A stretch of DNA of 64,000 nt from positions 1 to 64,000 of the forward strand of contig NZ_RCUY01000014.1 of assembly GCF_003667575.1 (NCBI RefSeq), read 5' to 3'. The position numbers and the translations under genes were made by a program. Within the stretch, counting starts at the first letter, position 1. Every line of letters begins with the position of its first letter. Below the pieces are notes generated by a model. It searched no databases. It was not told where the DNA came from and saw only the letters and a list, made by a program, of their open reading frames with translations. Origin of the DNA: Mycetocola lacteus (GTDB lineage: Bacteria > Actinomycetota > Actinomycetes > Actinomycetales > Microbacteriaceae). Of the stretch, positions 17,193 through 58,821 are shown one piece after another.

Positions 17193-17209
17193 GTATCCGG
17201 CTCTTCCGA

Positions 17210-17758
17210 TTACAGGTTCACCAGCGTCTTAGACCGGTCTTTCTGCGCCAGGAAGAAGCCGCAGGCGGCAATGGCCCAGCCCCACACGGCATGGCCGAAC
17301 AGCTCGGAGAAGTGTTCCTCCCAGGGCTGGTTCCAGGCGGCAGGCACCGTCCCCATCGCGGGCATCAGGATCAGGTGGAAAAAGACCCAGACCACGAGGC
17401 CGAAGGCGGCCCCCTGCCACAGCGAGGTGATCGGCAAGTACTGGGCGGCGAAGAGATACACCATGGCGCACACGATTGAGAAGGCAAAGTGGATAATCAG
17501 AGCCACGTAGAAGACCTTCTGATCTCCGAACATCACGAAGGAGTGGGTCTGCTCGGAGGTCATCCCAAACTGCTCCAGCAGCGTCTGCGGCGGGTTGGTG
17601 GCGTTTCGCTCGATGGTGCGTGGCGGGAAGATGACCTCCCATCCAATCTTCACCATCCCGGAAATCATTCCGGCGATAAAGCCGTACCACAGGCTCTTTA
17701 GGATGATCGTTCCCACCGGAGCGGTCGGTTTTGTTACCTTAAACACTGTTTCCCCCAC
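17210..17758 (-). CDS. YagU-family (DUF1440) inner membrane protein
   Basis: A 182-residue protein with about four membrane segments: YGFIAGMISGMVKIGWEV (about 25-42), FYVALIIHFAFSIVCAMVYLFA (about 83-104), LWQGAAFGLVVWVFFHLILMPAMG (about 113-136) and ELFGHAVWGWAIAACGFFLA (about 151-170). The motifs WEVIFPPR, LWQGA and SELFGHAVWGW match E. coli YagU, a membrane protein linked to acid resistance. Function here is not established. It sits between comF and hpf, a position where relatives usually have nothing, and has its own terminator, so it is probably a separately transcribed insertion. Confidence 0.75.
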   Translation of the reverse strand: MGETVFKVTKPTAPVGTIILKSLWYGFIAGMISGMVKIGWEVIFPPRTIERNATNPPQTLLEQFGMTSEQTHSFVMFGDQKVFYVALIIHFAFSIVCAMVYLFAAQYLPITSLWQGAAFGLVVWVFFHLILMPAMGTVPAAWNQPWEEHFSELFGHAVWGWAIAACGFFLAQKDRSKTLVNL

Positions 17759-17998
17759 ACATGATTGTCCCCAAAATTACGTCGGTTATGACAGCTACTA
17801 GCGTAATTTTTGCGACAAATCCCTGTCAATGAAGTTGCATCCGTGCGGCCAGAACTCACCTCTCACTTTGGTCCTGGGTATACCAAGAGACTCCTAAAAA
17901 CCCCGAAAATTCAGTATTTTTCAGCTAGGTGCATGCATCACTCACCCAGAATCCCGTGCGCAATCACACCCGTCAAATAGCGACACCAGTTGTATGCA

Positions 17999-18787
17999 TT
18001 AGAGTCCTGGGGGCCCGCCTGCACCGCATTTCGTTCCGTCGCTGCCGGGAGGGGGCGGCCGTGCGGAGTGTTCTTCCCGGGCCGCACGCGCGAGCACCAA
18101 CACACCAGCCGGCGGCATCCCAGCACTCCGGAGCGCACGCACGGCTTCCCGGAGGGTGGCACCACTCGTGCACACATCATCAACCACCCAGAATGCCTCG
18201 GGCCGCGGCGAACGGGCAGACGCGCTCCGGGAGGCGAGTAGCCGTGTCGTGCCGCGCGCCCGCACCCGCACCCGCACCCGCAGGGCCCCGTCTAGGTTCT
18301 GGGCACGCTCGGCGAGGTTCAACCCCAGTTGATCACGCGGCGCACGCGCCCACTCCAACATCCGTCGCGGTGTGTGCCCGGTGCGCCGAATCAGCATCTC
18401 GACCGGGTGGTACCCACGCCGAATAAATCCGGCGTCCCGACCCGGGACGGGCACCAGAACGGCAGGGGCCAACCCCGGCTGCTCGGCGGCCTCGGCGATG
18501 GTTTTGGCTAACGGCGCGGCTAACGCACCGGCAAGGTCGACTCGATGGTGGTTCTTGAAGTCGATGATCAGCCGGGCGTGGGGATCGTGATAGCGCAGGG
18601 CCCAGAGCAATCGGACGTCGGGGGCACCGGGTAGCCGCCCCTCATGTGGCGTCGCCGCGGCGAGCGCGGCACGGCAGCCCGGACAGAGCCCGGACACGGG
18701 CCAGCGTGGATCGGCCGGATGCCCGCATCCGGCACAGGGGATGGGAACAAAGCAGCCAAGGGTGAAGGAGGCGATTCGAGTGGTCAT
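17999..18787 (-). CDS. comF: ComF-family phosphoribosyltransferase-like protein
   Basis: A 262-residue ComF/GntX protein. A four-cysteine zinc motif lies at the N-terminus (CAGCG and CPGCR), followed by WALRYHDPHARLIIDFKNHHR and a PRPP-binding loop FWVVDDVCTSGATL near residue 210. ComF proteins support DNA uptake in competent bacteria; in actinobacteria the role is uncertain. The start at 18787 is preferred because the zinc motif begins about 12 residues later; an upstream in-frame ATG at 18964 would overlap lpqB coding sequence. It follows lpqB on the same strand by 92 bp, as in related genomes. An Arg-Val run arises from a short hexanucleotide repeat. Confidence 0.88.
   Translation of the reverse strand: MTTRIASFTLGCFVPIPCAGCGHPADPRWPVSGLCPGCRAALAAATPHEGRLPGAPDVRLLWALRYHDPHARLIIDFKNHHRVDLAGALAAPLAKTIAEAAEQPGLAPAVLVPVPGRDAGFIRRGYHPVEMLIRRTGHTPRRMLEWARAPRDQLGLNLAERAQNLDGALRVRVRVRARGTTRLLASRSASARSPRPEAFWVVDDVCTSGATLREAVRALRSAGMPPAGVLVLARAAREEHSARPPPPGSDGTKCGAGGPPGL
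18257..18284. repeat. Short CGCACC repeat within comF
   Basis: Three CGCACC units plus flanking partial units encode alternating Arg-Val residues on the minus strand. Like the tract at 12733 it is in frame, so copy changes would only alter local length. Confidence 0.6.
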
Positions 18788-25334: not shown

Positions 25335-26581
25335 GTGTGCTCGAAACCGACACGACACCCGAGGTGGCCTCCCCCGCGCTGACCCCCACGGTCCGCGGAT
25401 TCCTGCGTCAACGACGCTTCTGGATCATCGCGGCGGCGGTGATCGTCGTCACCGCCCTGATTCTGATGGTGCTTGGCAATGCCGGCAACGCCCGCGGTCG
25501 AGACCTCTCGGCCGAGGACCCCTCGCCGGTGGGATCACAGGCGGTGGCGAATGTGCTGCGGGACCACGGGGTCCGCATCACCGTTGCGCACTCCTTTGAG
25601 CAGGCAAAATCGGCGCTCGAATCCGCGCCCGGGACCCTCCTCTTCGCCGATACCGGCGGATATCTGGACGGCACTCGGGTGCAGGAACTCGCGAATACCG
25701 CAACCTCAACGGTGCTGGTGGACCCGGGATTCTCGATCCTGTCCGAATTTGATCTCGGCGTGATGCCCGCGGGCTTGGCCTCGGATGAGGTCTCCAAAGA
25801 GGTGGCCTGCCGGGTACCCGCGGCCGTCCGCGCGGGCAGCATCACCACCGGACGGGTGTTCCAGACCGAGTCCGCAACCGGGTGCTTCGGTACCCCCACC
25901 GACGGATACTCGCTGGTGGTGAGCGAGGATCACAAGGTGACCGTGCTCGGGTCGCGGTCGGTCCTGCAAAACGAATCCGTGCTGCGGGAGGGCAACGCCG
26001 CTCTCGCGGTGGGCCTGCTGGGGGAAAATACCCACCTGGTTTGGTACATCCCCACCGCGGCAGACCTGGAAGATACCGGTATCACCTCCCTCGAGGATGC
26101 GACGCCGGTCTGGCTCACCCCGGTTTTGCTGCTGCTGTTTGTCACCGCACTGGCGGCCTTTGTGTGGCGTGGACGTCGATTCGGCAAGCTCGTCGCCGAG
26201 GATCTGCCCGTGGTGGTTCCGGCCTCGGAAACCCGTCGGGGACGCGCCCGCCTCTACCAGCGGGTGGGCGCACGCACCCGGGCTCTGGATGCGCTTCGGA
26301 TCGGGGTGGTGGATCGATCCAGCGCGCTGCTGGGCCTCCCCCGGCAGACATCCGCCGATGAGGTGGCCCTCGCCGTCGCCGACCGGCTGGGCCATTCCCG
26401 TGCCGACATCTTCGACCTGCTGATTGCCCGTCCGGCCTCCACCGAGGCCGAACTGGTCCAGCTCGCCCGAGCCCTTCACGATCTGGAGGACGCGCTGGCC
26501 GCGGCCCTGGATCCCAGCCGTCCGACATCGCCCGGGCAGGCACCCCACCATACCGATCCCTCGTCCCTCGACCGGAAGTAG
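25331..26581 (+). CDS. DUF4350-domain membrane protein
   Basis: A 416-residue protein. It has a first membrane segment (FWIIAAAVIVVTALILMVLG, about 31-50), then a large extracytoplasmic DUF4350 domain beginning DPSPVGSQAVANVLRDHGVRITVAHSFEQAKSAL, a second membrane segment (PVLLLLFVTALAAFVW, about 265-281) and a cytoplasmic helical tail ending in an Ala/Asp-rich helix. The ATG at 25331 overlaps the DUF4129 stop (ATGA), which decides the start over a longer reading at 25250. DUF4350 resembles the regulatory or sensor partner of MoxR systems. Function unknown. Confidence 0.82.
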   Translation: MSVLETDTTPEVASPALTPTVRGFLRQRRFWIIAAAVIVVTALILMVLGNAGNARGRDLSAEDPSPVGSQAVANVLRDHGVRITVAHSFEQAKSALESAPGTLLFADTGGYLDGTRVQELANTATSTVLVDPGFSILSEFDLGVMPAGLASDEVSKEVACRVPAAVRAGSITTGRVFQTESATGCFGTPTDGYSLVVSEDHKVTVLGSRSVLQNESVLREGNAALAVGLLGENTHLVWYIPTAADLEDTGITSLEDATPVWLTPVLLLLFVTALAAFVWRGRRFGKLVAEDLPVVVPASETRRGRARLYQRVGARTRALDALRIGVVDRSSALLGLPRQTSADEVALAVADRLGHSRADIFDLLIARPASTEAELVQLARALHDLEDALAAALDPSRPTSPGQAPHHTDPSSLDRK

Positions 26582-26586
26582 CTACG

Positions 26587-27570
26587 ATGACACTCAGCGC
26601 CGAAGAAATCCACGCCCGCGACAACAACCTGCGCGGTGCCCTGGCCCGGGTTCGGGCCGAGGTGGGCAAGTCCGTTGTGGGGCAGGACGCCGCCGTCAGC
26701 GGTCTGATCATCGCCCTCCTCGCCCAGGGGCATGTGCTCCTGGAGGGTGTGCCGGGTGTGGCCAAGACCCTGCTGGTGCGTACACTCAGTACCGCGCTGT
26801 CGCTGGACACCAAGCGGGTGCAGTTCACCCCCGACCTGATGCCGGGCGATGTGACCGGTTCGCTGGTGTACGACGCCAAGGCTGGAGATTTCGAGTTCCG
26901 TCGTGGTCCGGTCTTCACCAACCTGCTGCTCGCGGATGAGATCAACCGCACGCCCCCGAAGACCCAGTCGGCGCTGCTGGAGGCCATGGAGGAGCGCCAG
27001 GTGTCGGTGGACGGCGTCTCGCTGCCGCTGCCGAGCCCGTTCCTGGTGGCCGCGACCATGAACCCGATCGAGTATGAGGGCACCTATACGCTGCCCGAGG
27101 CCCAGCTTGACCGATTCCTGCTGAAGCTGGTGCTGGATCTGCCCGAGCGCGACACCGAGATCGAGGTGCTGCGCCGTCACGCGCTGGGATTCAACCCACG
27201 CGACCTGGGCGGAGCCGGCGTACAGCCGGTGCTCAGCGCCGAAGAGCTCACGGCCGCCCAGGCCGCCGCCGCACAGACCACCGTCTCCGGCGACGTGCTG
27301 GCCTACCTGGTGGATCTGGCCCGCGCCACCCGGCAGAGCCCGTCGGTGCGCATGGGTGTGAGCCCGCGTGGTGCCACCGCGCTGCTGGCCAGTGCTAAGG
27401 CGTGGGCCTGGCTGAGTGGATACCCGGCGGTGACCCCCGATCACGTGCAGGCGATGGTCCTGCCGGTCTGGCGTCACCGGTTGCAGCTGCGTCCCGAAGC
27501 CGAGCTGGAGGGTGTGTCCGCGGACACCATTCTGCGCTCGATCATGCAGCAGGTTCAGGTTCCCATCTAA
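26587..27570 (+). CDS. MoxR-family AAA+ ATPase
   Basis: A 327-residue AAA+ ATPase with Walker A GVPGVAKT (about 54-61), Walker B and following LLLADEINRTPPKTQSALLEAMEERQVS, sensor 1 FLVAATMNPIEYEGTYTLPEAQLDRF and a C-terminal lid with RMGVSPRGATALL. MoxR proteins act as chaperones that insert cofactors or assemble complexes with von Willebrand factor A proteins, usually the neighbouring DUF58 protein. Its stop (TAA) is immediately followed by the DUF58 start with no spacing, so the two are coupled. No anomalies. Confidence 0.93.
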   Translation: MTLSAEEIHARDNNLRGALARVRAEVGKSVVGQDAAVSGLIIALLAQGHVLLEGVPGVAKTLLVRTLSTALSLDTKRVQFTPDLMPGDVTGSLVYDAKAGDFEFRRGPVFTNLLLADEINRTPPKTQSALLEAMEERQVSVDGVSLPLPSPFLVAATMNPIEYEGTYTLPEAQLDRFLLKLVLDLPERDTEIEVLRRHALGFNPRDLGGAGVQPVLSAEELTAAQAAAAQTTVSGDVLAYLVDLARATRQSPSVRMGVSPRGATALLASAKAWAWLSGYPAVTPDHVQAMVLPVWRHRLQLRPEAELEGVSADTILRSIMQQVQVPI

Positions 27571-28902
27571 ATGGCGATCACCGGTTGGTTTGTGCTGGTT
27601 GTGGGCGCCGGGGTCATCCCGATCGTTGTGGGCACCGGTCTCGGCGGCAACCCGCTGTTGATTCTGGCGGGTTGGATAGCGCTGTCCGCGGTGTTGCTGA
27701 TCCTGGATCTGGCCCTCGCCGCCTCGCCCCGCGCGCTGCGCCTGGTCCGTGGCGGTGCCTCGCGGGCCCGCCTGGGCGAGCCCACCGATGCCCTGCTGTA
27801 CCTCACCAACACCGGTGCGCGCACGCTGGTGGGCATCGTTCGGGATGCGTGGATGCCGTCTGCCGGTGCCCAAACATCGCGCGCGCGAGTCCGGATTCCC
27901 GGTGGCGAGCGACGCCTGGTGCGCACGGTTCTGGTCCCCACCCGGCGGGGCGAGCGGCGCAGTGAATCGGTGACCATCCGCTCCTTCGGCCCGCTCAGAC
28001 TCGCCGCCTGGCAGACCACCCTGTCGGCACCGGGTGCCCTGCGGGTGCTTCCGCCGTTCAGGTCGCGCCGTCACCTGCCCTCGCGGTTGGCCCGGTTGCG
28101 CGAGCTCGATGGCGCCACCTCGCTGATGGTGCGCGGTCAGGGCACCGAGTTTGACTCCCTGCGCGACTATGTCCGCGGCGATGATGTGCGCTCGATCGAC
28201 TGGCGCGCCAGCGCACGCCGGATGGGCGGCCAGCCGGACGCGGGCGAGCACCTGGTGGTACGCACCTGGCGTCCCGAACGCGACCGTCGCGTCATCATCG
28301 TGGCCGATACCGGCCGTGCCGGGGCCGCCCGCATCGCCGATGAGCCGCGCCTGGATACCGCATTTGAGGCATCGCTGCTGCTGGCCGCGCTGGCCACCCG
28401 TGCCGGGGACCGTGTGGATCTGCTGTGCTTTGACCGTCGTATCCGCGGGCGGGTAACCGGCTCTACCGGTGCCGCCCTGCTGGAAAACATGGTGAACACC
28501 ATGGCCGATATCGAGCCCGAACTAATCGAAACCGACTGGTCGGCCATTCCCGCGGAGGTGCGTCAGATCACCTCCCAGCGGTCGCTGGTGGTCATCCTGA
28601 CCGCGGCCGAGAGCCCGGGATCCGCGGCCGATCTGATTGCCAGCCTGCCCGAACTCACCGCGCGTCACCTGGTGGTGGTCGCGTCGGTGCGCGATCCCGA
28701 AGCGCTGGCCGCCCGCCATTTTGTGGACAGCCGCGAGGATGTGTATGAGGCCGCCGGTGCCGAGCGTGCACTGTTGGATGCCGACCGGGTCGCCCAGGCA
28801 TTGCGCCGCGTGGGTGCCGATCCGATTGCCGGTTCTCCGGAGGCGCTGCCCCCGCTCCTCGCCGACCACTACCTGGCGCTCAAACGGGCGGGCAAGCTCT
28901 AG
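27571..28902 (+). CDS. DUF58-domain protein, partner of MoxR
   Basis: A 443-residue protein with two N-terminal membrane segments (about 5-20 and 25-48) and a DUF58 core marked by GQGTEFDSLRDYVRGDDVRSIDWRASARR. It continues into a von Willebrand A-like fold (RVIIVADTGRAG, a degenerate MIDAS strand). It is the likely client or partner of the upstream MoxR ATPase. The ATG immediately follows the moxR stop. The last 23 bp overlap the 3' end of the degraded gene described at 28880. Confidence 0.9.
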   Translation: MAITGWFVLVVGAGVIPIVVGTGLGGNPLLILAGWIALSAVLLILDLALAASPRALRLVRGGASRARLGEPTDALLYLTNTGARTLVGIVRDAWMPSAGAQTSRARVRIPGGERRLVRTVLVPTRRGERRSESVTIRSFGPLRLAAWQTTLSAPGALRVLPPFRSRRHLPSRLARLRELDGATSLMVRGQGTEFDSLRDYVRGDDVRSIDWRASARRMGGQPDAGEHLVVRTWRPERDRRVIIVADTGRAGAARIADEPRLDTAFEASLLLAALATRAGDRVDLLCFDRRIRGRVTGSTGAALLENMVNTMADIEPELIETDWSAIPAEVRQITSQRSLVVILTAAESPGSAADLIASLPELTARHLVVVASVRDPEALAARHFVDSREDVYEAAGAERALLDADRVAQALRRVGADPIAGSPEALPPLLADHYLALKRAGKL

Positions 28903-29066
28903 CTGCTGGACGTTTCCTCCTGCAGGCCCATCCGCGCCGCTCCAGGAAGTCGGAGAGCCTTTCGGCGGGAACCAGGAGCAGCAGGGTGATCGGCGATCGC
29001 TCCAGTGGAGTCTCAAAAGCTGACCAGCCGGTCCGGGCCACGCTGGGTGCGCGGAATTCGACTCAT
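28880..29066 (-). pseudogene. Frameshifted remnant of a short gene downstream of DUF58
   Basis: From an ATG at 29066 with a GAGGGGG ribosome site upstream, 17 codons are open (MSRIPRTQRGPDRLVSF) and then a stop occurs. Removing one T from the TTTT run (complement of 29015-29018) restores a 61-residue reading to a stop at 28880, continuing ETPLERSPITLLLLVPAERL and SDFLERRGWAC. The total length with one base removed is exactly 62 codons. The hydrophobic strand and RGW ending faintly recall LssY-type C-terminal domains, but this is not firm. A homopolymer sequencing error is possible. Confidence 0.45.
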
Positions 29067-29097
29067 GGATTCATCCCCCTCGGGTGCGCGTGACCGT

Positions 29098-29610
29098 TTA
29101 GGAAACCGTGGCCGGTGACGCGGCCTCCAGTCGACGACTGCGGACGGCCAGGATGATCATCACGGCCGGAATCAGCACGTCATAGGCCAGCACGCCGCCG
29201 GTGTTCCCGGGCTCCCAGTTGCCGTGGGCCAGCGACTGATAGACGTGACCGAGGGTGGCACCCCAGAGGAACATCCCGGCAATCAGGCCGATCGTGATGC
29301 GCTCCCGGGCACCGGCGTGTACGGCACGGAAACCACCGATCGCCAGGCCGAGATTTGCGAAGGCGATCTCGGTGACAAACGGGGTCTGCTGGAATCCGAT
29401 GGCGGTGGTCATCACGTCGGGGATGACCAGGAATGACAGGGTCATCCAGGCGCTTCCGCACCCGAGCGCGGCCACCGCCCACCAGCGCTGCCAGATTTCC
29501 AGGCGCGGAAGTTTCGTGGATCGTGCCGAGTGAATGCTCGCCCCGATCACGGCGATCAGCAGCCAGAGGGCGGGAACGGACGTTTCAAAAATGAACTGTG
29601 AGGTAGACAT
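29098..29610 (-). CDS. Four-helix membrane protein (DUF6790-like, tentative)
   Basis: A 170-residue integral membrane protein with about four to five hydrophobic segments (about 12-28, 44-66, 86-105, 113-130, 140-155). It contains GHVYQSLAHGNWEPGNTGGVLAYDVLIPAVMI, a pattern seen in DUF6790-type proteins. The ATG at 29610 is chosen because the longer reading from 29727 crosses the MarR promoter. It is divergent from the MarR gene with a palindrome in the 56-bp gap, so it is the probable regulatory target. The function is unknown; MarR-controlled membrane proteins often relate to stress or export. Confidence 0.65.
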   Translation of the reverse strand: MSTSQFIFETSVPALWLLIAVIGASIHSARSTKLPRLEIWQRWWAVAALGCGSAWMTLSFLVIPDVMTTAIGFQQTPFVTEIAFANLGLAIGGFRAVHAGARERITIGLIAGMFLWGATLGHVYQSLAHGNWEPGNTGGVLAYDVLIPAVMIILAVRSRRLEAASPATVS

Positions 29611-29616
29611 GCCGAC

Positions 29617-29650
29617 AGTCTTGCACACGCAATATTGCATGCACAAGACT
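29617..29650. promoter_or_regulatory. 34-bp palindromic operator between divergent membrane gene and MarR
   Basis: The two halves match at 14 of 17 positions. The outer arms are AGTCTTG and CAAGACT and the centre is the perfect 10-mer GCAATATTGC. It occupies most of the 56-bp intergenic region and abuts the proposed MarR -10 box, so one bound MarR dimer (or pair) could repress both directions. Confidence 0.75.
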
Positions 29651-29654
29651 GCGC

Positions 29655-29660
29655 TATACT
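29655..29660 (+). promoter_or_regulatory. -10 box TATACT of the MarR gene; probable leaderless transcript
   Basis: TATACT ends 6 nt before the ATG at 29667, so transcription should start at or next to the start codon. No ribosome-binding site is present. Leaderless mRNAs are common in actinobacteria. Confidence 0.6.
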
Positions 29661-29666
29661 GATCAC

Positions 29667-30143
29667 ATGGATGATGGAATTGCCGACCTGCTGCACCGCG
29701 TCGTCGCGACCTTTGGCGATCTTGCACGCCAGCGCATGGCCGCCGGCGACTCCGCGCTGACGTATACCCAAATTCGGATTATCGGCACCCTGGAGGAATC
29801 TCCGGGAATGACCCAGCGTCAACTCTCCGACTCCGTCGGCCTCTCCGAAGCGGCGACATCCCGAGCCCTGCGCACGCTGCGCGACGAGGGATTTGTGGAC
29901 ATCATCACCGATCCCACCCACGCCAAGCGACGCCTCGCCTCGGCCACCCCCGCGGGTCTCGACGCGTTCCACGCCTCGGGCACCGCGAGCGCAACCCAGC
30001 TTCGCGAATGGCTGATCCGCGAGGGCTTCCCCTATGATCGCTACCTCGCCGACTCGCAGCATCTTGCCGAGCTTCTCGGGTCACTCAACCAGGCCCCCCA
30101 GTCGGCTCCAGTCGCCAATGCTCCGGCAGCCCCCGGAGAATAG
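29667..30143 (+). CDS. MarR-family transcriptional regulator
   Basis: A 158-residue winged-helix regulator. The core reads YTQIRIIGTLEESPGMTQRQLSDSVGLSEAATSRALRTLRDEGFVDIITDPTHAKRRLASATPAG, with the recognition helix around 60-75 and the wing with Asp and Arg at about 85-95. An N-terminal dimer helix precedes it. It starts directly after the palindrome it most likely binds and is divergent from the membrane protein at 29098. It appears leaderless. The ligand is unknown. Confidence 0.9.
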   Translation: MDDGIADLLHRVVATFGDLARQRMAAGDSALTYTQIRIIGTLEESPGMTQRQLSDSVGLSEAATSRALRTLRDEGFVDIITDPTHAKRRLASATPAGLDAFHASGTASATQLREWLIREGFPYDRYLADSQHLAELLGSLNQAPQSAPVANAPAAPGE

Positions 30144-30256
30144 GGCGTCACGCCACCATCCAGTTTCGGACACGCACCACTACTGCCGCGATGCCGGTGC
30201 AACGTTTAACCCCAACGATCACCGCCAGCCGGCGCTGATTTTCACCGGGGAAAGCG

Positions 30257-30667
30257 GTGCACGTGCGCAGGTACTGGCAGATTCTCGCCCTCATTCTGGC
30301 CCTCGCGGCCGGGTGGCTCTACTTCTCAGCGCCTGGATTTCGAGTAAATAACATCGATGCGTACGTCTGGTGCGATCCGCTCGCGCCTCAGATCGGAACT
30401 CAGGTCTCGCTGTATTCGTCGCCGGGCGAGCGCGGAGAAATCGTTGATCAATACGTCGACTCAATGCTTCACGACGGAGAGGATCGCCGCTCCAGTACCG
30501 CAGATCGGGTCCGTTCAACCCTGGATCTCCGCTGCCAGGACGCGAGAGCGGGCAGGCAGGCAACGTTCAACGGCGTGCTCACGATTTCGGTGTTGTTTGT
30601 TGTCTGGTGGCGCACCAGAGCCGTTTCAGCGCCTCCTCGGAAAAACCTCACATCCAAGGAGCGCTAG
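30257..30667 (+). CDS. Small two-span membrane protein, paralogue A of the accessory block
   Basis: A 136-residue unrecognised protein. One membrane segment lies near the N-terminus (ILALILALAAGWLYFSAPGF, about 9-28) and a second near residue 105-120 (VLTISVLFVVWW). The roughly 75-residue segment between, probably extracytoplasmic, has two cysteines (VWCDP, LRCQD) that could form a disulfide. It is paralogous to the protein at 30837: GWLYFSAPGF against GWLFLTAPSF, the EIVDQYVDS against DVIDRYLTS helix, and a Cys-Gln-Asp at the same place. The start is a GTG with GGGGAAAG before it. Its stop overlaps the next start (TAGTG). It is the first gene of an accessory operon of lower GC. Confidence 0.6.
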   Translation: MHVRRYWQILALILALAAGWLYFSAPGFRVNNIDAYVWCDPLAPQIGTQVSLYSSPGERGEIVDQYVDSMLHDGEDRRSSTADRVRSTLDLRCQDARAGRQATFNGVLTISVLFVVWWRTRAVSAPPRKNLTSKER

Positions 30668-30840
30668 TGGCCGACACCCCAGCAACTATCAGAGCACTCG
30701 TAAGGACCATGATTATGCACCGAAAAACATTGGGAGCTGTGCAACGCATTGTGATTACCGCAGCCGAGGCTCCACTCAACGTCCGATGCCGGATCGGATT
30801 TAGACGAGGCTCTCGTCACCGTGAAACGTGGACACGATGA
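30667..30840 (+). CDS. Possible 57-residue basic peptide between the two paralogues
   Basis: A GTG at 30667 shares a base with the preceding stop (TAGTG), and the TGA at 30838-30840 overlaps the next ATG (ATGA). The frame therefore connects the two paralogous genes with coupled starts and stops at both ends, as expected if translated. The 57-residue product is basic and shows no recognisable domain or membrane segment. No ribosome site is visible. It may be a real small gene, a coupling peptide or chance. Confidence 0.35.
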   Translation: MADTPATIRALVRTMIMHRKTLGAVQRIVITAAEAPLNVRCRIGFRRGSRHRETWTR

Positions 30841-31265
30841 GGAGAATCCCACACATCCTCGCAACTCTTTTGATCTTCTCGGTTGGGTGGCTATTCCTCA
30901 CTGCACCAAGTTTCAGCGTTCCCAACACCTACGAACGTCTGCAGTGTCAACCACTCGGCGATATCTCTGATAACCCGCGGTCCCTCATCGGTGGCCCCCT
31001 CGAAAACGTTGACGTAATTGACCGCTATCTCACATCGACCGGGTCGAATAGCGAACAGCGCATCCAAAACTCCATCGACGAGGCGAACGCCACAGCCATC
31101 CAAATCTGCCAGGACCTGCGCAGCAACCGCCAAACCACGATCGTCCTGCTGTTGGCACTGATCATTTTGATCGGCATCGGGCTCTGTGCCGCCTCGGTTA
31201 AACGATCTCTGACGAACAAATTGCCCGGATCCGCTCCGAACACGGATGGAGAACCCGTCACATGA
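30837..31265 (+). CDS. Small two-span membrane protein, paralogue B of the accessory block
   Basis: A 142-residue relative of the 30257 product. Membrane segments are at about 5-22 (PHILATLLIFSVGWLFLTA) and 101-119 (TIVLLLALIILIGIGLCAA), with an intervening domain of about 75 residues holding two cysteines (LQCQP, QICQD) at corresponding positions. The ATG at 30837 aligns best with the paralogue; a GTG nine bases upstream is possible. It overlaps the next gene by four bases (ATGA). No function is known. The conserved topology and cysteines suggest a role outside the membrane, perhaps immunity or anchoring for the neighbouring helical proteins. Confidence 0.6.
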   Translation: MRRIPHILATLLIFSVGWLFLTAPSFSVPNTYERLQCQPLGDISDNPRSLIGGPLENVDVIDRYLTSTGSNSEQRIQNSIDEANATAIQICQDLRSNRQTTIVLLLALIILIGIGLCAASVKRSLTNKLPGSAPNTDGEPVT

Positions 31266-32062
31266 ACTATTCAACGCTCAGCGCAACCATCGGGCAGCTT
31301 AAACAGGCGTCGATAGACGCCTACATGCGGGGAAAAGGGTGGCGGATGGCGGGCGATCAGTATGTGCTTTCCGCTGGGACTACTTCACTGTCGGCCACCC
31401 GACCGAACTCAAGCGGCAGCGGGGGCGGGCGCGTTACCGGACTAATTCCCCAGGCCCAGGCGGAAGAATTTGCGGCAGCCTTTGCGGATATCTCGGATGA
31501 GATAGATGCGCTCCTCTACCCCTGGGAGAGTCTCCCCGATCCTGATGGGATAGAGGAAGTTTTGGAATCATGTAGGCGCACCACTCAACGACTCTCAGGT
31601 GCAAGCTCCGTATCTAACGGCGAGCTGATGGCCGCGGGAAACATAGCAAGCTATCTGAAACTCATAGATCAAAACACGATCGCGTTGTCCGGAATCACGA
31701 TTGCCACATTCAAGGCCAAATTTCTTGCACAACTCGGTGTGACCGCTGGTGGTCTCCATGCAATTTCGCTGGCGAGGGGAGCCAACATTGCCGCACAGAA
31801 GGGTATTTGGACCAGGGCTCGCAAAAATGTAGTTGAAATTGTTTCTAACGCGCGCGATGCAATGACTGCCATTTCCTCCGGAAAATCCGGATTAGCAGAA
31901 ACCACACTTCAGGTCGCCGGATGGGCAGGCAAAGGCCTCTCGATTTTCGCTTCCGGAGGGGTCTCTGTTGCTCTTGAAGTTGTGAATCTTGGCATCTCCA
32001 TTCTCTCAGAGACAGATCAGAAAAGGGTTGAAGCCTCGTACAAAGCGATATCTTTTGACTAG
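31262..32062 (+). CDS. Unknown helical protein with PWxSLPDP motif (WXG/LXG-like, tentative)
   Basis: A 266-residue protein of unknown family. There is no signal peptide. It has a Gly/Ser-rich linker (about 50-57), then YPWESLPDPDGIEEVLESC (about 86-104), a long helical bundle (about 120-210) and a hydrophobic region at 219-250. The PWxxLPDP motif at the start of a helical bundle, and the helical WxG-like neighbour, resemble type VII secretion-associated helical proteins of actinobacteria, but no EccC/FtsK gene is in view and this is inference. GC is about 50% here (30 of 60 at 31681-31740) against 42 of 60 at 28321-28380. It overlaps the upstream gene (ATGA) and is followed by the 32066 gene after three bases. 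Confidence 0.55.
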   Translation: MNYSTLSATIGQLKQASIDAYMRGKGWRMAGDQYVLSAGTTSLSATRPNSSGSGGGRVTGLIPQAQAEEFAAAFADISDEIDALLYPWESLPDPDGIEEVLESCRRTTQRLSGASSVSNGELMAAGNIASYLKLIDQNTIALSGITIATFKAKFLAQLGVTAGGLHAISLARGANIAAQKGIWTRARKNVVEIVSNARDAMTAISSGKSGLAETTLQVAGWAGKGLSIFASGGVSVALEVVNLGISILSETDQKRVEASYKAISFD

Positions 32063-32065
32063 GCA

Positions 32066-32575
32066 ATGACGGGTTTAGGCACCGCCCTAGACAAGCTCAA
32101 TGGACAGATTAAAGACGAGGAACGCGCGATCGAAGCAAACGCCAAACACAACCTCAACAGCGTGCAAAACTCACGCTCCCCCTACGATCCATCCCAACCG
32201 CCGATGGCCAGTAGCGACGGGATCATCATTCTTGATAGACAGCTGGTGGACGAAATCGTGAGGTCGTATCTCCCCGAAATTGGGATCGAACTTGAAGACA
32301 TTGCCGCCAAAGATCGCAACTGTGACGCTTCCTCCCATGTCATGCGCAGCCCGGAACTCGGAATGAGCGCGACCGGCCCGAGTAACAGCATTCGCGAGCT
32401 GAACTGGCAGCTGTATAAGCTCCTCAAGGATCTTGCCTGGGAAGTGGACAACGGTGCCCGCGTCCTCTCGCTGGCCATCGCCGACCTGATGGACGAGGAC
32501 GAAAATGCCGCGGCCGAGCTGGTCCGCCTAGCCAACCAAATCGCCCAGGGCACCCCGACCGACCCGTGGGGCTAG
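32066..32575 (+). CDS. Unknown acidic helical protein, partner of the 31262 product (tentative)
   Basis: A 169-residue protein. The N-terminal 50 residues are charged and Asn-rich. From residue 53 on there are two long helices, VDEIVRSYLPEIGIELEDIAAKD and RELNWQLYKLLKDLAWEVDNGARVLSLAIADL, separated by a loop (SPELGMSATGPS). A helix-loop-helix of this size with a Trp near the second helix resembles WXG100-type proteins, though no canonical WXG is present. The start follows the upstream stop by three bases, behind TAGG. It is the last gene of the block; the VOC gene starts on the other strand nine bases later. Function unknown. Confidence 0.55.
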   Translation: MTGLGTALDKLNGQIKDEERAIEANAKHNLNSVQNSRSPYDPSQPPMASSDGIIILDRQLVDEIVRSYLPEIGIELEDIAAKDRNCDASSHVMRSPELGMSATGPSNSIRELNWQLYKLLKDLAWEVDNGARVLSLAIADLMDEDENAAAELVRLANQIAQGTPTDPWG

Positions 32576-32584
32576 TGTGATCGT

Positions 32585-32944
32585 CTAGTCGTGCGCGTCG
32601 CCGATGCAGAATACGGTCCCAAAGGGGTCGGTGAACACATCCCACTGAATACCCGGAAACTCATGGTGGGCCTGATGCTCGGCACCCGCCGCACGCACCG
32701 AATTCAGCAGGGCTTCACGCTCCTCACCGGCCTCCAGATCGAAATCGAGGTGGATCAGGTTTTTCCCCGGTGTCGGGTCCGGAACCTTCGCGAACCCCAG
32801 GTTGATGCCGGGAATAGCACCCGAAAGCACCAGGAACTCCCCCGTCCCACCCACATCGTTGAGTGCGCCGCCCAGAAGTTCCGCCCACCAGGCAGCCACG
32901 GGCGCCGGGTCGAGGGTGTCCAGGGTGATCATGCCGAGTCGCAT
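32585..32944 (-). CDS. VOC-superfamily (glyoxalase-like) protein
   Basis: A 119-residue single-domain VOC protein: MRLGMITLDTLDPAPVAAWWAELLGG at the start, NLIHLDFDLEA in the centre and FPGIQWDVFTDPFGTVFCIGDAHD at the end, with the paired beta-alpha-beta-beta-beta plan. These proteins bind a metal or small molecules; specific activity cannot be told. The ATG at 32944 follows GAAAGGA and the family begins there; upstream residues are not conserved in character. It is convergent with the accessory block (nine bases between stops). Confidence 0.75.
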   Translation of the reverse strand: MRLGMITLDTLDPAPVAAWWAELLGGALNDVGGTGEFLVLSGAIPGINLGFAKVPDPTPGKNLIHLDFDLEAGEEREALLNSVRAAGAEHQAHHEFPGIQWDVFTDPFGTVFCIGDAHD

Positions 32945-33057
32945 CGGGGGTCCTTTCGCCGGTGAAGAGTATCCCCAGCGTAGCCGGATCCCCCGACCGT
33001 TCGCCAGAACCTCGCCAGCACCCAGCAGCGCCACGGAGGTCGCCTGGAAACCACAAA

Positions 33058-33093
33058 CCGCACGACGCCGCCGGTGAGGGCGACGCCGTGCGG
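33058..33093 (-). terminator. Terminator of katA
   Basis: CCGCACG (33058-33064) pairs with CGTGCGG (33087-33093) and the inner GACGCC/GGCGAC further extends the stem. On the minus strand a TTTG follows. It lies about 20 nt after the catalase stop. Confidence 0.6.
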
Positions 33094-33111
33094 CGGAGCG
33101 GGGAACCGAGC

Positions 33112-34563
33112 CTAGGCGGCCAGGTTGGCGGCGAGCGCCGCCCCCAGGGTTGCGTCCACGTTGGTCCAGTAGGCGATGGCCCGGGCACGGATCTCGGTGT
33201 TCTGGACGGCACCCACGTGACCGGTGATGGTGGCCAGCAGGCGGGCGCGCTGCGCGTCATCCATGACCTCGCGGACGAGGGTTCCGGCCTGACCGAAGTC
33301 GTCGTCCTCGGCGTGCAGGCTGGCGGCGGTCCGAGCGAACTCGCCGTCGTTCTCCCAGCCACGCTCATCGGCGGCATAGGCGGAATCTCCGGCGGGGCCA
33401 CCCACCGAGTTCGGTGCGTAGACCGGGGTCGATGCGGAGTTGAACGAGTAGCGTGCGGCACCGTCCTGCGAGTACGAGTGAACCTCGTTCTTGGGGGCGT
33501 TCACCGGCAGCTGAGCGTGGTTCGTGCCCACGCGGTAGCGGTGTGCATCCGCGTAGGAGAAGATGCGGGCCAGCAGCATGCGGTCGGGGCTGGCGGCAAT
33601 ACCCGGCACGAAGTTCGAGGGGGCGAAGGTGGCCTGCTCGATCTGCGCGAAGTAGTTCTCCGGGTTGCGGTTCAGCTCAAACTGACCCACCTCGATCAGC
33701 GGGTAGTCGGCCTTGGGCCACACCTTGGTGAGGTCGAACGGGTTGAAGCGGTAGGTCTTGGCATCCTCGTAGCCCATGACCTGAACCGAGACGGTCCAGC
33801 TCGGGAACTCCTCGCGCTCGATGGCGTCGTGGAGGTCGCGGATCATGTAGTCGGCGTCGGTTCCGGCCAGACGCTCGGCCTCTTCGGCGGTCAGCGAGGC
33901 ATTGCCCTGGTTGGTGCGGAAGTGGTACTTGACCCAGAACCGCTCACCCTCGGCGTTGATCCACTGGTAGGTGTGCGAACCGAAGCCGTCCATGTGACGC
34001 CAGTTGGCGGGGATACCGCGGTCACCCATCAGCCAGGTCACCTGGTGTGCACTCTCCGGGGAGAGCGACCAGAAGTCCCACTGCATGTCGTTGTCGCGCA
34101 GGTGGCTACCCGGCAGACGCTTCTGCGAGTGGATGAAGTCGGGGAACTTGATGCCGTCGCGGATGAAGAACACCGGGGTGTTGTTACCCACCAGGTCGTA
34201 GTTGCCCTCGGTGGTGTAGAACTTCAGCGCGAAACCGCGCGGGTCACGCCAGGTGTCGGGGCTTCCGGCCTCACCGGCGACGGTCGAGAACCGGGCCAGA
34301 GCCTCGGTGACCACGCCGGGCTGGAACAGCGCGGCCTTGGTGTAGGCCGAGACATCGTGGGTCACGGTCAGGGTACCGAAGGCTCCGCCGCCCTTGGCGT
34401 GCACCACACGCTCCGGCACACGCTCGCGGTTGAACTGGGCGAGCTTCTCAACGAGGTAGTGGTCGTGCAGCGGGATCGCACCGTCGCGGCCGATCGCAAG
34501 CGAGTGCGAATCGGCGCTGACCGGGGCGCCGGAGTTGGTGGTGGTGGTCGGTGATTCCGTCAT
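33112..34563 (-). CDS. katA: Monofunctional haem catalase (KatA type)
   Basis: A 483-residue small-subunit catalase that splits hydrogen peroxide. The distal active-site His is His55 in [12 protein letters not shown], the distal Asn is in [14 protein letters not shown], and the haem-ligand Tyr is in [14 protein letters not shown] near residue 330. Length is typical of clade 3 enzymes. The ATG at 34563 is preceded by GAGGAG at good spacing; an ORF extension upstream is not coding in character. It is preceded on the same strand by a Fur-family regulator, the usual arrangement for peroxide-responsive catalase control. Confidence 0.96.
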
Positions 34564-34593
34564 GGTGATCTCCTCTTTTTTCGCTGGCAAGTA

Positions 34594-34619
34594 CCCCGAT
34601 GTGGCAGCTGCCACCGGGG
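34594..34619 (-). promoter_or_regulatory. Hairpin in the fur-katA intergenic region
   Basis: A perfect 12-bp palindrome TGGCAGCTGCCA sits within CCCCG/CGGGG arms, about 30-55 nt upstream of the katA start. No T run follows in the direction of transcription. It could be a 5' untranslated region hairpin, a partial terminator after fur or an operator. Confidence 0.45.
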
Positions 34620-34658
34620 TGTGTCACAGTGTCCGGGTATAGGCCGGGACCGTCTGGT

Positions 34659-35123
34659 TCAGGAGACGGGTTCGGCCGTGTTTTCCGCGCGGGCCACCTC
34701 GTCCTGGCAGGCCGGACACAGCCCCCAGAACGTGACCTCGGCGGTCTGCACCGTGTATCCCGAGGCGTTGCCCGGGTGCAGGCACGGAGCGTGCCCCACA
34801 ACACAGTCCACATCGTTGATCGCACCGCAGCGGGTGCACACGATGTGATGGTGGTTATCATCCACCCGACGCTCATACCGGGCCGGGGAACCGGCCGGTT
34901 CGATCCGACGCAACAGGCCGGCATCGGTGAGCGCAGACAGGACGCCGTAGACGGCCTGCACCGAGGTGTCCGGGAGGTCCGCGAGGACCCGCTCAAACAC
35001 GGTGCCGGCATCCACATGCGACTTCTCGCCCACCGCGCCCAGCACCGCAAGACGCGGGGCGGTGAGGCGGAGCCCTGCGCCGCGAATGGCGTCGGAGAGT
35101 TCCTCGGTGGTGGCGACTGTCAT
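34659..35123 (-). CDS. Fur-family regulator (peroxide/iron response, FurA/PerR-like)
   Basis: A 154-residue Fur-family repressor. The winged helix is at about 20-80 (LRLTAPRLAVLGAVGEKSHVDAGTVFERVLADLPDTSVQAVYGVLSALTDAGLL). The dimer/metal domain contains DDNHHHIVCTRCGAI and a second Cys pair CPAC, the zinc site. The ATG at 35123 is preferred to a GTG at 35132. It lies directly upstream of katA, so it probably represses katA and itself with iron or manganese and is relieved by peroxide. An AT-rich palindrome before it is a likely box. Confidence 0.88.
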   Translation of the reverse strand: MTVATTEELSDAIRGAGLRLTAPRLAVLGAVGEKSHVDAGTVFERVLADLPDTSVQAVYGVLSALTDAGLLRRIEPAGSPARYERRVDDNHHHIVCTRCGAINDVDCVVGHAPCLHPGNASGYTVQTAEVTFWGLCPACQDEVARAENTAEPVS

Positions 35124-35138
35124 GACACCCACCCTACA

Positions 35139-35165
35139 CGTTTTTTTGAATGACTAAAAATAACG
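35139..35165. promoter_or_regulatory. AT-rich palindrome upstream of fur (Fur-box candidate)
   Basis: A 27-bp symmetric element running from CGTTTTTTT to AAAAATAACG, matching in 10 of 13 paired positions. It stands out in a high-GC background and lies 16 nt upstream of the fur start. Fur-family proteins bind AT-rich dyads, so autoregulation is likely. Confidence 0.6.
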
Positions 35166-35196
35166 AGGGGTTTCCGTGTGGCGAACGGAGGTTGAA

Positions 35197-36192
35197 CTAG
35201 CCCGCGTAGACGCGCTGGGCACCGGATTCAAACTCGCCCAGATCGCCGGTTTCTCCCGACCGATATGCCTTCCGTCCCAGAATCAGCATGTAGGCGAGGA
35301 ACCCCAGGAACACCGCGGCACCGATTCCGATTTTCACCGGCCAGGGCAGCGCGGATCCGGTCACAAAACCCTCCACGACACCCGAGACTCCCAGCACAAA
35401 CACCAGGCCGATGGCCACGGTGATCAGCGAGCGACCGTCCTCGGCGAGCGCCACCAGACGCGGCCGCTTGCCCGGAGCCACCCAGGCCCAGAAGATGCGC
35501 AGACCCGCTGCGGCGGCCACAAAGATCGCCGTCAGCTCCAGCATGCCGTGCGGGGCAATGTAGAGGAAAAAGTCACCGCCGTGGCCGAAGGTGTGCAGGA
35601 TCGCGAACGACTGCCCCAGTCCCTGAGCGTTCTGCGCGATGATAAACGGCACCCAGATTCCGGTGACCCCGAAGGCCACCGCCTGGGCGGCGATCCACGC
35701 GTTATTGGTCCAGACCATCGCCCCGAACGAGGAGGACGCATACTCGGAGTAGTACTGGTAAAAGTCCTCCGAGGCGTACTTTTCCAGGCCGGCCTGGGTC
35801 CCCAGGTTGTAGACCAGCTGCGGATCTCCGAGCAGCCAGATGGCCCACGCCACCGCGATCAGGATTGTGGCCAGCGCCACGGCGAGGGTCAGCCAGCGAA
35901 TCCGATAGAGCGCGGCCGGCAGCTGCAGCACAAAAAACTCGCCCAGCTGAAGCAGCACGTTTTTGCTCGCGGCGGTAAAGCGCAGCCGGGAGCGGGCGAT
36001 GATCACTCCGAGACGATCCCCGTCCGGGGTGCTGCCGGCCGAGGCCTGAAGCACCGAAAGATCACTCGCGGCCGACTGATAGCGGGCGATAAACTCGTCG
36101 GCTTCGGCACCACTGAGCGAGCCTCTGGCGGAGAGCGCCTGAAGCCGGGTCCATTCTTTTTCGTGCGCGGCACGATACGCGTCAAGATCCAT
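35197..36192 (-). CDS. SpoIIM-like (DUF95) membrane protein
   Basis: A 331-residue protein with an N-terminal cytoplasmic helical region (about 1-85), then about six membrane segments. FVLQLPAALYRIRWLTLAVALATILIAVAW, NNAWIAAQAVAFGVTGIWVPFIIAQNAQGLGQSFAIL and FFLYIAPHGMLELTAIFVAAAAGLRI are the stage II sporulation protein M pattern, including the HGMLEL motif. In non-sporulating actinobacteria these proteins occur beside RDD and MoxR/DUF58 genes; the role is unknown. The ATG at 36192 is preferred over one 30 nt upstream. It is divergent from the RDD gene with a 17-bp gap. Confidence 0.88.
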   Translation of the reverse strand: MDLDAYRAAHEKEWTRLQALSARGSLSGAEADEFIARYQSAASDLSVLQASAGSTPDGDRLGVIIARSRLRFTAASKNVLLQLGEFFVLQLPAALYRIRWLTLAVALATILIAVAWAIWLLGDPQLVYNLGTQAGLEKYASEDFYQYYSEYASSSFGAMVWTNNAWIAAQAVAFGVTGIWVPFIIAQNAQGLGQSFAILHTFGHGGDFFLYIAPHGMLELTAIFVAAAAGLRIFWAWVAPGKRPRLVALAEDGRSLITVAIGLVFVLGVSGVVEGFVTGSALPWPVKIGIGAAVFLGFLAYMLILGRKAYRSGETGDLGEFESGAQRVYAG

Positions 36193-36209
36193 CTGCTTAG
36201 ATTGTAGAC

Positions 36210-37061
36210 ATGACCGCGACATTTTCGCCGATTGCCGTCGGCGACAGCACGGAAAACGAACTCATCACCGGTGAGGCCGTTGTCCTCGAGGTGCGCCATA
36301 CCTCGTTCCTGCTGCGCGCCGCCGGTGCCCTAATTGACGGCCTGGTTACGGTCATCTTCATCATCGGCTGCTTCATGCTGCTGGGGATGCTCTCCACGAT
36401 GATCGACATGGATGCGGCCATCGGGCAGGCGCTGAGCGTGGCCGTCGTAGCCACCGGGCTGGTGATCCTGCCGGCCACCGTGGAAACCCTCACCCGCGGC
36501 CGTTCCGTCGGCCGCTTCACCGTGGGTGCACGAATTGTGCGCAACGATGGCGGAGCGATCTCCTTCCGTCACGCCCTCACCCGGGCGCTTGTGGGCGTGC
36601 TGGAGCTGTACCTCACGCTGGGCGGGTTGGCCGCAACCGTGGGGCTGCTGAATAATCGCAGCCGCCGCCTGGGCGATCTCCTGGCGGGCACGTACTCCCA
36701 GCACGAACGCGTCCCGCAGATTCGTCGTTTTATCCGGCCCATGCCGCCCGAGCTGTACGGGTGGGCACAGATCGTCGACGTCGCCAAGCTCCCCGAGCCG
36801 CTCGCCCGTCGAATCAGCCAGTTCCTCGCCCAGGCGGACCGGTTCACCCCCGAATCTCGGTTCCGCGTGGCCAGCGAGCTGGCGGCCGAGGTTGCCCCCT
36901 TCACCTCGCCGCTCCCGCGCGTGCATCCGGAAACCCTGCTGGTGGGGGTGGCCGCGATCCGTCGCGACCGTGACGCCCGTGCGCTGCAGGCGCGGGGCCG
37001 CCGCCTCGATGCACTGGCACCGGCGCTGATGGGCACACCTCACGATTTCCCCCAGCGGTAG
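36210..37061 (+). CDS. RDD-family membrane protein
   Basis: A 283-residue protein. The RDD domain (about 27-165) has three membrane segments and the hallmark residues: SFLLRAAGALIDGLV (Arg, Asp), GRSVGRFTVGARIV and NNRSRRLGDLLAGT (the second Asp). The C-terminal 110 residues are soluble and predicted helical. It is divergent from the SpoIIM-like gene in the same order seen in other actinobacteria. The very short 5' region with TAGATT before the ATG suggests a leaderless transcript. Function unknown; RDD proteins have been linked to transport. Confidence 0.88.
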   Translation: MTATFSPIAVGDSTENELITGEAVVLEVRHTSFLLRAAGALIDGLVTVIFIIGCFMLLGMLSTMIDMDAAIGQALSVAVVATGLVILPATVETLTRGRSVGRFTVGARIVRNDGGAISFRHALTRALVGVLELYLTLGGLAATVGLLNNRSRRLGDLLAGTYSQHERVPQIRRFIRPMPPELYGWAQIVDVAKLPEPLARRISQFLAQADRFTPESRFRVASELAAEVAPFTSPLPRVHPETLLVGVAAIRRDRDARALQARGRRLDALAPALMGTPHDFPQR

Positions 37062-37096
37062 GAGGCCATGCCGCTCCCACCCGCTAGCATTTCCGT

Positions 37097-37648
37097 ATGA
37101 CCGGTACCGAGTGGATTGGCATCCCCGACTCCCCCACGCGTGAGCACATCAATACCGACGCTCTCGATCGGATCCGCCTCGCCGACGGTGAGCCGTTTCC
37201 GCCGTCCTATCGTGCACTGATTCGCCAGGTGGGCTGGGGGCGGCTCTTTGGGCTGTGGTTCATCTATCCCCCGGTCAGGGAGGGGTATGCCGATGGTTGG
37301 CCCGGCCGCACCTCACGATTGAGCGAGCACTTTCGGGTTGTGTACGCCGACAGCCGCGCCGAGGAGTACACCTGGGTCATCGAGCCCGATGGCTCCTGGG
37401 ACCTGTCCGAACGACTCGAGGTTTTTGGGTGGAGCGAAAACGGCGACTACCTGCTCTGGGAGCTCGGTGCCCGCACGCCGCAGGGTGAACTCCCGATCTG
37501 GGAATCCCGCGGGCTCGGATCACTGCACCGCCTGGGGAGCAGCCTCGACGAGGCGCTGCCGCTCCTGCACGAGCGCGCCACCGACCCGGCGGCCCCGGAC
37601 ACCCCGCTGTTCCAGCCCCTTCCAAGCTTCCGCCTGAACATCAACTAG
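37097..37648 (+). CDS. SUKH (SMI1/KNR4)-like protein
   Basis: A 183-residue soluble protein. EPFPPSYRALIRQVGWGRLFGLWFIYPP and LEVFGWSENGDYLLWELG resemble the two conserved parts of the SUKH fold, which often serves as immunity protein in polymorphic toxin systems and otherwise as a binding scaffold. No toxin gene is adjacent, so an immunity role is only a possibility. It starts 35 nt after the RDD gene stop and may be cotranscribed. Confidence 0.55.
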   Translation: MTGTEWIGIPDSPTREHINTDALDRIRLADGEPFPPSYRALIRQVGWGRLFGLWFIYPPVREGYADGWPGRTSRLSEHFRVVYADSRAEEYTWVIEPDGSWDLSERLEVFGWSENGDYLLWELGARTPQGELPIWESRGLGSLHRLGSSLDEALPLLHERATDPAAPDTPLFQPLPSFRLNIN

Positions 37649-58815: not shown

Positions 58816-58821
58816 TGAGTC

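What the first reader, a model, noticed from the sequence alone, without database searches (positions are those of the whole stretch)
30257..32575. Uncharacterised five-gene overlapping block of small membrane and helical proteins in a GC-poor island
Two paralogous two-span proteins with matching cysteine pairs (30257 and 30837), a coupled 57-residue frame between them, and two helical proteins (31262, 32066) are joined by overlaps of 1-4 bases or a 3-base gap. GC is near 50% (30 of 60 at 31681-31740; 29 of 60 at 31801-31860) against 42 of 60 at 28321-28380. None of the products is recognised. The PWxSLPDP helical protein and its two-helix neighbour resemble WXG/LXG-type secreted partners, so an ESX-linked effector/partner module with membrane immunity or anchor proteins is one hypothesis. 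No secretion ATPase is in view.
Basis: partly seen in the sequence, partly recalled or inferred. Interest (0 to 1): 0.72.

Follow-up and report, generated by a model that had tools for sequence, protein, structure and literature searches.

The report
Interrupted type VII secretion cargo gene
A small accessory stretch of an actinobacterial genome carries two membrane-protein genes and one gene for a large helical protein, cut in two by a single stop codon; relatives of that protein were found almost only in bacteria with a type VII secretion machine, so it is probably an accessory secreted effector with its membrane partners, possibly now disabled.

Summary
The overlaps, the two paralogous two-span cysteine proteins and the GC dip are real. 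The count of five genes is not. The 'helical protein' (31262) and its 'two-helix neighbour' (32066) lie in one reading frame and are halves of one 437-codon frame, interrupted by one TAG at 32060-32062. Intact relatives are single proteins of 438-519 aa, in Microbacterium, Schumannella, Gulosibacter, Leucobacter, Nocardioides and MAGs. The 57-residue frame has no support as a gene. The 2.5 kb block is absent from three same-genus genomes. The ESX link is supported: EccB is in 27 of 398 family genomes but in 6 of 7 carriers of this protein, and in 8 of 8 carriers of a class sample. One relative lies in an EccC/mycosin/WXG100 locus. The window's own genome has EccB, EccC, EccD, mycosin-type and WXG100 genes on another contig, with an intact paralogue about 18 kb from EccB. 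WXG100 and LXG membership is not supported; no Pfam or NCBIfam model matched. Best reading: a T7SSa-linked accessory effector/membrane-partner module, possibly membrane-acting, interrupted here by an amber codon; no suppressor tRNA among 57 of 63 tRNA matches read. Secretion, toxicity and immunity are inferred, not shown.

The parts
30071..32578 (.). Accessory block, 56.8% GC, absent at the same place in three same-genus genomes
   Evidence: Flanks 26003-30070 and 32579-37638 align to G001 at 90-94%, with about 136 bp in place of this block; no alignment across it in G002 or G003 either, where flanking genes are missing too; GC
30257..30667 (+). ORF1: small membrane protein, probably two-span, with a cysteine pair (C..L ... 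C...R)
   Evidence: Paralogue of ORF3, and related to a protein adjoining the Leucobacter relative; second span weak
30667..30840 (+). ORF2: 57-codon frame, unsupported as a gene
   Evidence: Flat codon-position GC and no similarity to the others; no family match
30837..31265 (+). ORF3: second two-span protein with the same cysteine motif (ATG start; a GTG at 30828 is also possible)
   Evidence: 31% identical to ORF1; score 89 with the Leucobacter protein, 0 of 400 shuffles; spans
31262..32062 (+). ORF4: N-terminal 266 residues of the T7SSa-linked helical protein
   Evidence: Matches intact relatives, e.g. 39% over 253 aa to Nocardioides sp. Root190, E 5e-45 in a small set of 18 proteins
32060..32062 (+). 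In-frame TAG that interrupts the protein
   Evidence: Sequence and alignment; internal TAG in the profile match
32066..32575 (+). ORF5: C-terminal 169 residues of the same protein
   Evidence: 35% over 173 aa to the C-terminal part of the same Nocardioides protein, E 3e-27

Best explanation
The block is an accessory module of the cell's type VII secretion system (T7SSa, ESX type). It encodes one all-helical cargo protein of about 436 residues and two paralogous small membrane proteins. The most likely mechanism is that the helical protein is exported by the EccB/EccC/EccD-mycosin machine encoded on another contig and acts at the envelope of rival bacteria, while the small membrane proteins, with their cysteine-bearing loops outside, protect the producer or anchor the protein. 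In this genome the cargo gene carries one in-frame TAG. It is therefore either recently inactivated (most likely), wrongly read at one base, or made as two chains by stop-and-restart. Shown: one frame, family, genome linkage, absence from sister genomes. Inferred: export, target, immunity, membrane orientation.
For: Single frame and continuous homology across the TAG. Co-occurrence: EccB in 27 of 398 family genomes; carriers 7 of 398, 6 of 7 with EccB; class sample EccB 139 of 379, carriers 8 of 379, all 8 with EccB; hypergeometric 3.7e-7 and 2.9e-4, not corrected for kinship. A relative inside an EccC/mycosin-type/WXG100 locus in G049. Own genome, contig C14: EccC-type gene at 55584-59552, 70% identical to that of G049; EccB, EccD and two WXG100 genes over their Pfam cut-offs; an array of four mycosin-type S8 proteases; paralogue at 16717-18033. 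Two-span proteins directly upstream of the relative in Leucobacter and G314 and downstream in G210. Helical models with pLDDT 82.8 and 81.9. No CTA, TTA or TCA anticodon among the 57 of 63 tRNA matches read.
Against: Nothing here shows secretion, toxicity or protection. EccE was not identified: the gene at C14:53534-55591 that I had taken for it by size is an RDD/FHA protein; EccE was not searched for genome-wide. The mycosin call rests on S8 matches and a TIGR03921 match well under its cut-off (111 against 279 bits). The window copy's C-terminus lacks the aromatic residue of the YxxxD/E-type motif. The two-span proteins were seen only at Microbacteriaceae loci (window, Leucobacter, G314, G210), not in the Nocardioides loci scanned. 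G314's protein does not match the window pair above shuffles (54-126 of 400), nor does the nearer G210 protein with local-block shuffles (73 and 286 of 400). Codon bias fades through the second half of ORF4, which fits decay.
Confidence: 0.5

Rival explanations
1. The TAG is a built-in break: the protein is made as two chains by termination and immediate reinitiation at the ATG three bases on, and the chains assemble into the same helical body.
For: ATG one codon after the stop; the stop falls at the start of a long helix (residue 270; helix 268-306 in the model of the Nocardioides relative); no other stop or frameshift shows in either half, and the second half keeps strong codon bias.
Against: The 17 relatives aligned are single chains (in the class sample G532 shows one TGA in its match and G560 and G603 match only in part; not looked into). 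I see no ribosome-binding sequence before 32066. Other copies in the family are plainly decayed: G210 in several frames, G260 eroded. Codon bias fades in the second half of ORF4.
Confidence: 0.2
2. The small two-span proteins are export or anchoring parts of the secretion system (a minimal stand-in for mycosin) rather than immunity proteins.
For: In Gulosibacter hominis the place directly upstream of the relative is taken by a mycosin-like protein with a hydrophobic segment near each end, whose catalytic Asp, His and Ser are all replaced in an alignment with three mycosin-type proteins.
Against: No Pfam match of the two-span proteins to S8 proteases; only one such case was seen; tandem duplication in the window fits immunity genes as well.
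Confidence: 0.2
3. The block is an assembly or contamination product rather than part of this genome.
For: The assembly has 8.95% estimated contamination; contigs C6 and C16 carry nine tRNA matches at identical coordinates.
Against: Both flanks run into genes colinear with same-genus genome G001 on one contig; the apparent contamination may be the duplicated contig; the block's GC resembles that of the T7SS accessory genes of the same genome, 54.5-56.4%.
Confidence: 0.04
4. TAG is read through or recoded in this genome's T7SS accessory genes.
For: A second T7SS-type gene, mycosin 4 at C14:47839-49269, is also full length apart from one TAG; both stops are followed by GCA.
Against: No suppressor tRNA among the 57 of 63 tRNA matches read; the six unread are C16 copies at the coordinates of C6 matches that were read. 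Two cases are few, and TAG ends several other genes in the stretches scanned.
Confidence: 0.05

Closest known systems
T7SSb LXG membrane-depolarising toxins with immunity proteins (EsxX/ExiCD, TspA/TsaI, TelE/TipE; passages of PMC12744356 and PMC10434224)
   Same: Genomic tie to a type VII system; long helical protein with a hydrophobic stretch holding loosely glycine-zipper-like patterns (14 of 18 members, clade II 8 of 8, window 1 hit, with a pattern looser than the published one and no chance control); small membrane proteins in the same cluster
   Different: No LXG domain match; T7SSa (EccB/mycosin) genomes; hydrophobic stretch central rather than C-terminal; toxicity untested
Mycobacterial ESX substrates (Esx/WXG100, PE/PPE, EspB)
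   Same: Linked to EccB/EccC/EccD/mycosin; clade II C-termini carry [YF]xxx[DE] in 7 of 8
   Different: No WXG100 similarity; none of the 20 weak Pfam families listed is a PE, PPE or Esp model; window copy lacks the aromatic residue
ClyA-type alpha pore-forming proteins (ClyA, Hbl/Nhe, Ahl, Smh)
   Same: Long helices flanking a strand-helix-helix-strand hydrophobic insert in the clade II model; 11 of the 50 listed Foldseek rows for that model (six entries, several chains of ClyA) and 4 of 50 for the clade I model are of this superfamily
   Different: No significant match: best such E 0.36 and 0.37, TM-scores 0.10-0.22; VIA Z 4.5-5.7, below BAR domains and a T3SS tip protein in the same lists (up to 7.8), a level common for helical bundles

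Membership tests
WXG100 (Esx) family | About 100 residues, helical hairpin with WXG, Pfam PF06013 | tested here: not met
   438-519 aa; no PF06013 match for any of 14 relatives at E up to 1 nor for ORF4/ORF5; profile comparison with five local WXG100s probability 0.5%
LXG toxins (T7SSb) | N-terminal LXG domain (Pfam) | tested here: not met
   No LXG match for any of 14 relatives at E up to 1, nor for ORF4/ORF5; fold comparison inconclusive
T7SSa-linked protein | Confined to, or encoded with, EccB/EccC/mycosin genomes | tested here: met
   6 of 7 carriers (family sample) and 8 of 8 (class sample; two genomes shared) have EccB; 10 of 12 named carrier genomes, three of them already in the family sample; G049 copy lies in a T7SS locus
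T7SSa exported substrate | C-terminal YxxxD/E-type signal | tested here: inconclusive
   Clade II copies 7 of 8 with [YF]xxx[DE]; window copy reads LMDED; the meaning of the motif is recalled, not from a call
T7SSa exported substrate | Secretion that depends on EccC | not testable with these tools
   Needs a bench assay
Membrane immunity protein of a T7SS toxin | Multi-span membrane protein in the same cluster | tested here: met
   Two hydrophobic segments around the cysteine loop in ORF3 and in the Leucobacter, G314 and G210 proteins; ORF1's second is weak; spans predicted by hydropathy only
Membrane immunity protein of a T7SS toxin | Neutralises the cognate toxin | not testable with these tools
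   Needs co-expression
ClyA-type alpha pore-forming proteins | ClyA fold: long helical tail with hydrophobic head | tested here: inconclusive
   Repeated but non-significant Foldseek rows; VIA Z 4.5-5.7; NCBIfam HblD E 0.0055 on one of four members scanned, far under its cut-off; Pfam HlyE E 0.22 on one of 14

The most novel reading that the evidence does not exclude
A type VII (T7SSa) cargo family of non-mycobacterial Actinomycetota that works as a membrane-inserting, ClyA-like helical protein, guarded by two-span membrane immunity proteins, and that in this genome is made as two separate chains through an in-frame stop and restart.
Probability: 0.08. Interest if true: 0.8.

Novelty: new variant of a known kind. 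Interest (0 to 1): 0.5.

Why it matters
T7SSa cargo is known mainly from mycobacteria (recalled). A family whose presence follows EccB in Microbacteriaceae and Nocardioides, and which matched no Pfam or NCBIfam model here, is a cargo candidate for the little-studied T7SSa of other actinobacteria and would give a direct test of what these systems do. The block also shows how an in-frame stop can make one gene look like two coupled partners.

Tried and rejected
Rejected: ORF4 and ORF5 as two partner proteins (same frame, continuous homology). ORF2 as a supported gene. WXG100 or LXG membership. A defence-system label (PADLOC: two weak matches only, E 0.0095 and 0.038). Plasmid or phage origin: no match of the Nocardioides relative in either collection, nor of the window DNA in the plasmids; viral contigs was not scanned. 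Repeats framing the block: none found; no recombinase match among its frames. Suppressor-tRNA explanation of the TAG. A solved structure by sequence: best E 0.12, to an unrelated protein. EspB, PE/PPE and LXG structures do not appear in the fold lists, which excludes nothing. EccE at C14:53534-55591: my own first label by size, withdrawn after a Pfam scan.

Led nowhere: first genome-contig scan with ORF4 alone; scan for same-frame continuations, too common to be informative; promoter/terminator scan at or below chance. Literature searches for T7SS with Microbacteriaceae, Microbacterium, Nocardioides, Leucobacter and Micrococcales: no listing (titles and abstract starts) points to this family; passages of PMC6106888 say that one Microbacteriaceae species lacks T7SS. 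The library holds only part of the literature.

Rows dropped: L051 (eroded fragment) from A2, leaving 14 of 15 loci; L049 also from A5, leaving 13. Thirteen family genomes with E 2e-5 to 0.01 were not counted as carriers; the profile search (at most four candidates scored per genome) kept one of them, G260. Six C16 tRNA matches at the coordinates of C6 ones were not read. The motif scan did not list ORF1 (weak second span) or the farther G210 protein; both were measured.
Full report
What is there. Between a MarR-type gene and a glyoxalase-type gene the window holds a 2.5 kb block of 56.8% GC, in the lowest-GC 2.5 kb stretch of the 64 kb. However, the frames at 31262 and 32066 are the same frame: the stop at 32060-32062 (TAG) is followed by one GCA codon and then the ATG at 32066. 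Read on, the frame has 437 codons plus a terminal stop.

One protein, not two. A search of 398 genomes of the family with ORF4 found relatives, and a scan of named genomes found 15 loci in Microbacterium, Schumannella, Gulosibacter, Nocardioides, Leucobacter and MAGs. The 17 relatives aligned are single proteins of 438-519 aa. ORF4 and ORF5 match consecutive parts of the same protein: for Nocardioides sp. Root190, 39% over 253 aa and 35% over 173 aa, E 5e-45 and 3e-27 in a set of 18 proteins. With a profile of 14 members the window gives one match over positions 3-447 of 448 with one internal TAG, E 2.3e-105. The copy in G210 is broken into several frames and that in G260 is eroded, so decay is not rare in this family.

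The interruption. A genome-wide tRNA search gave 63 matches, nine of them on contig C16 at the same coordinates as matches on C6. Of the 63, 57 were read with ARAGORN (all but six of those C16 copies); none has a CTA, TTA or TCA anticodon. Suppression by a dedicated tRNA is therefore unlikely. A second T7SS-type gene in this genome, the fourth mycosin-type gene of the array, also has one in-frame TAG. The window stop falls at the start of a long helix of the predicted fold, so a two-chain product is possible but not shown; codon bias fades through the second half of ORF4 and returns in ORF5.

Link to type VII secretion. EccB (PF05108) is in 27 of 398 family genomes. Seven of the 398 carry the family by profile, and six of the seven have EccB; the seventh has the eroded copy. 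In a class-wide sample, 139 of 379 have EccB, and all eight carriers are among them. Chance values are 3.7e-7 and 2.9e-4; they ignore kinship, two genomes are in both samples, and six of the eight class carriers are of one genus. In G049 the relative lies near an EccC-type gene, two mycosin-type genes, WXG100 and YbaB-type genes. In the window's own genome an EccC-type gene, EccB, EccD, a second EccD-like gene just under its cut-off, two WXG100 genes and four mycosin-type S8 genes lie on contig C14 between 35.7 and 59.6 kb; EccE was not identified. An intact paralogue is at 16.7-18.0 kb. That paralogue also lies on a block, about 5.9 kb, absent from the sister genome G001. The two copies belong to different clades of the family tree (clade II support 1.000), so they are not a recent duplication.

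Neighbours. ORF1 and ORF3 are paralogues. A related two-span protein with the same two cysteines lies directly upstream of the family member in Leucobacter sp. Ag1 (scores 77 and 89 with the window pair, 0 of 400 shuffles). In G210 the protein directly downstream does not exceed block shuffles with the window pair; one about 2 kb further matches ORF1 (63, 0 of 400) and ORF3 less well (42, 7 and 21 of 400). G314's, directly upstream of its relative, matches Leucobacter (65; 0 and 1 of 400) and the farther G210 protein (53; 1 and 2 of 400) but not the window pair. Clade II members instead have a 155-163 aa gene overlapping or abutting their stop in five of eight loci; in one of the other three the contig ends shortly after. 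In Gulosibacter hominis a mycosin-like protein with all three catalytic residues replaced lies directly upstream.

Structure. AlphaFold models of a clade I relative (pLDDT 82.8) and of a clade II relative (81.9) are helical bundles with long helices around a central insert; in clade II the insert is strand-helix-helix-strand and hydrophobic, in clade I often less so. No solved structure matches significantly. ClyA-type pore-forming proteins recur among the weak matches (11 of 50 rows from six entries, and 4 of 50 rows), with TM-scores of only 0.10-0.22; other helical proteins score higher in the second aligner. I treat this as a lead and not as membership.

What is known. Passages of PMC11217815 describe T7SSa as EccB, EccC, EccD, mycosin and usually EccE, and LXG proteins as T7SSb cargo. 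Passages of PMC12744356 and PMC10434224 describe T7SSb toxins that damage or depolarise membranes through glycine zippers and are blocked by membrane or soluble immunity proteins. The window module resembles these in outline. It is not an LXG or WXG100 protein by the tests made.

Verdict. The block is an accessory T7SSa-linked module: one cargo-type helical gene, interrupted by TAG, and two membrane-protein genes. Export, a membrane target and immunity are inferences. No model in the libraries searched matched the family, and no listing from the paper searches points to it.

Noticed in passing
G000:C14:47839-49269 (L053): The fourth mycosin-type gene of the T7SS array is full length with its catalytic residues, but has one in-frame TAG; like the window's TAG it is followed by GCA.
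   Followed up: partly
L028:9542-10975 (-), Gulosibacter hominis: A mycosin-like protein with all three catalytic residues replaced lies directly upstream of the clade I cargo-type gene.
   Followed up: partly
L004:8245-8721 (-), L032:9297-9770, L038:6932-7423, L039:11324-11791, L041:11305-11796: An unnamed 155-163 aa protein overlaps or abuts the stop of clade II members; a possible chaperone or partner.
   Followed up: no
L004:4430-10321: The intact paralogue lies on a second accessory block, about 5.9 kb, missing from the sister genome G001 at the same place.
   Followed up: partly
G000 contigs C6 and C16: Nine tRNA matches at identical coordinates on both contigs: probably a duplicated contig, which may explain the contamination estimate.
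   Followed up: no
window 28903-33152: The gap between the DUF58 gene and the catalase gene varies within the genus: G003 lacks the MarR-side genes too, and G002 lacks also the glyoxalase-type gene.
   Followed up: partly
L032:10119-11714 and L049:13116-14657: A shared protein of more than 500 residues, weakly hydrolase-like, lies near family members in two different genomes.
   Followed up: no
G000:C14:53534-55591 (L053:15535-17592): An RDD/FHA protein lies directly upstream of the EccC-type gene; an RDD gene also lies about 4 kb from the window block and an FHA gene on the paralogue's block.
   Followed up: no
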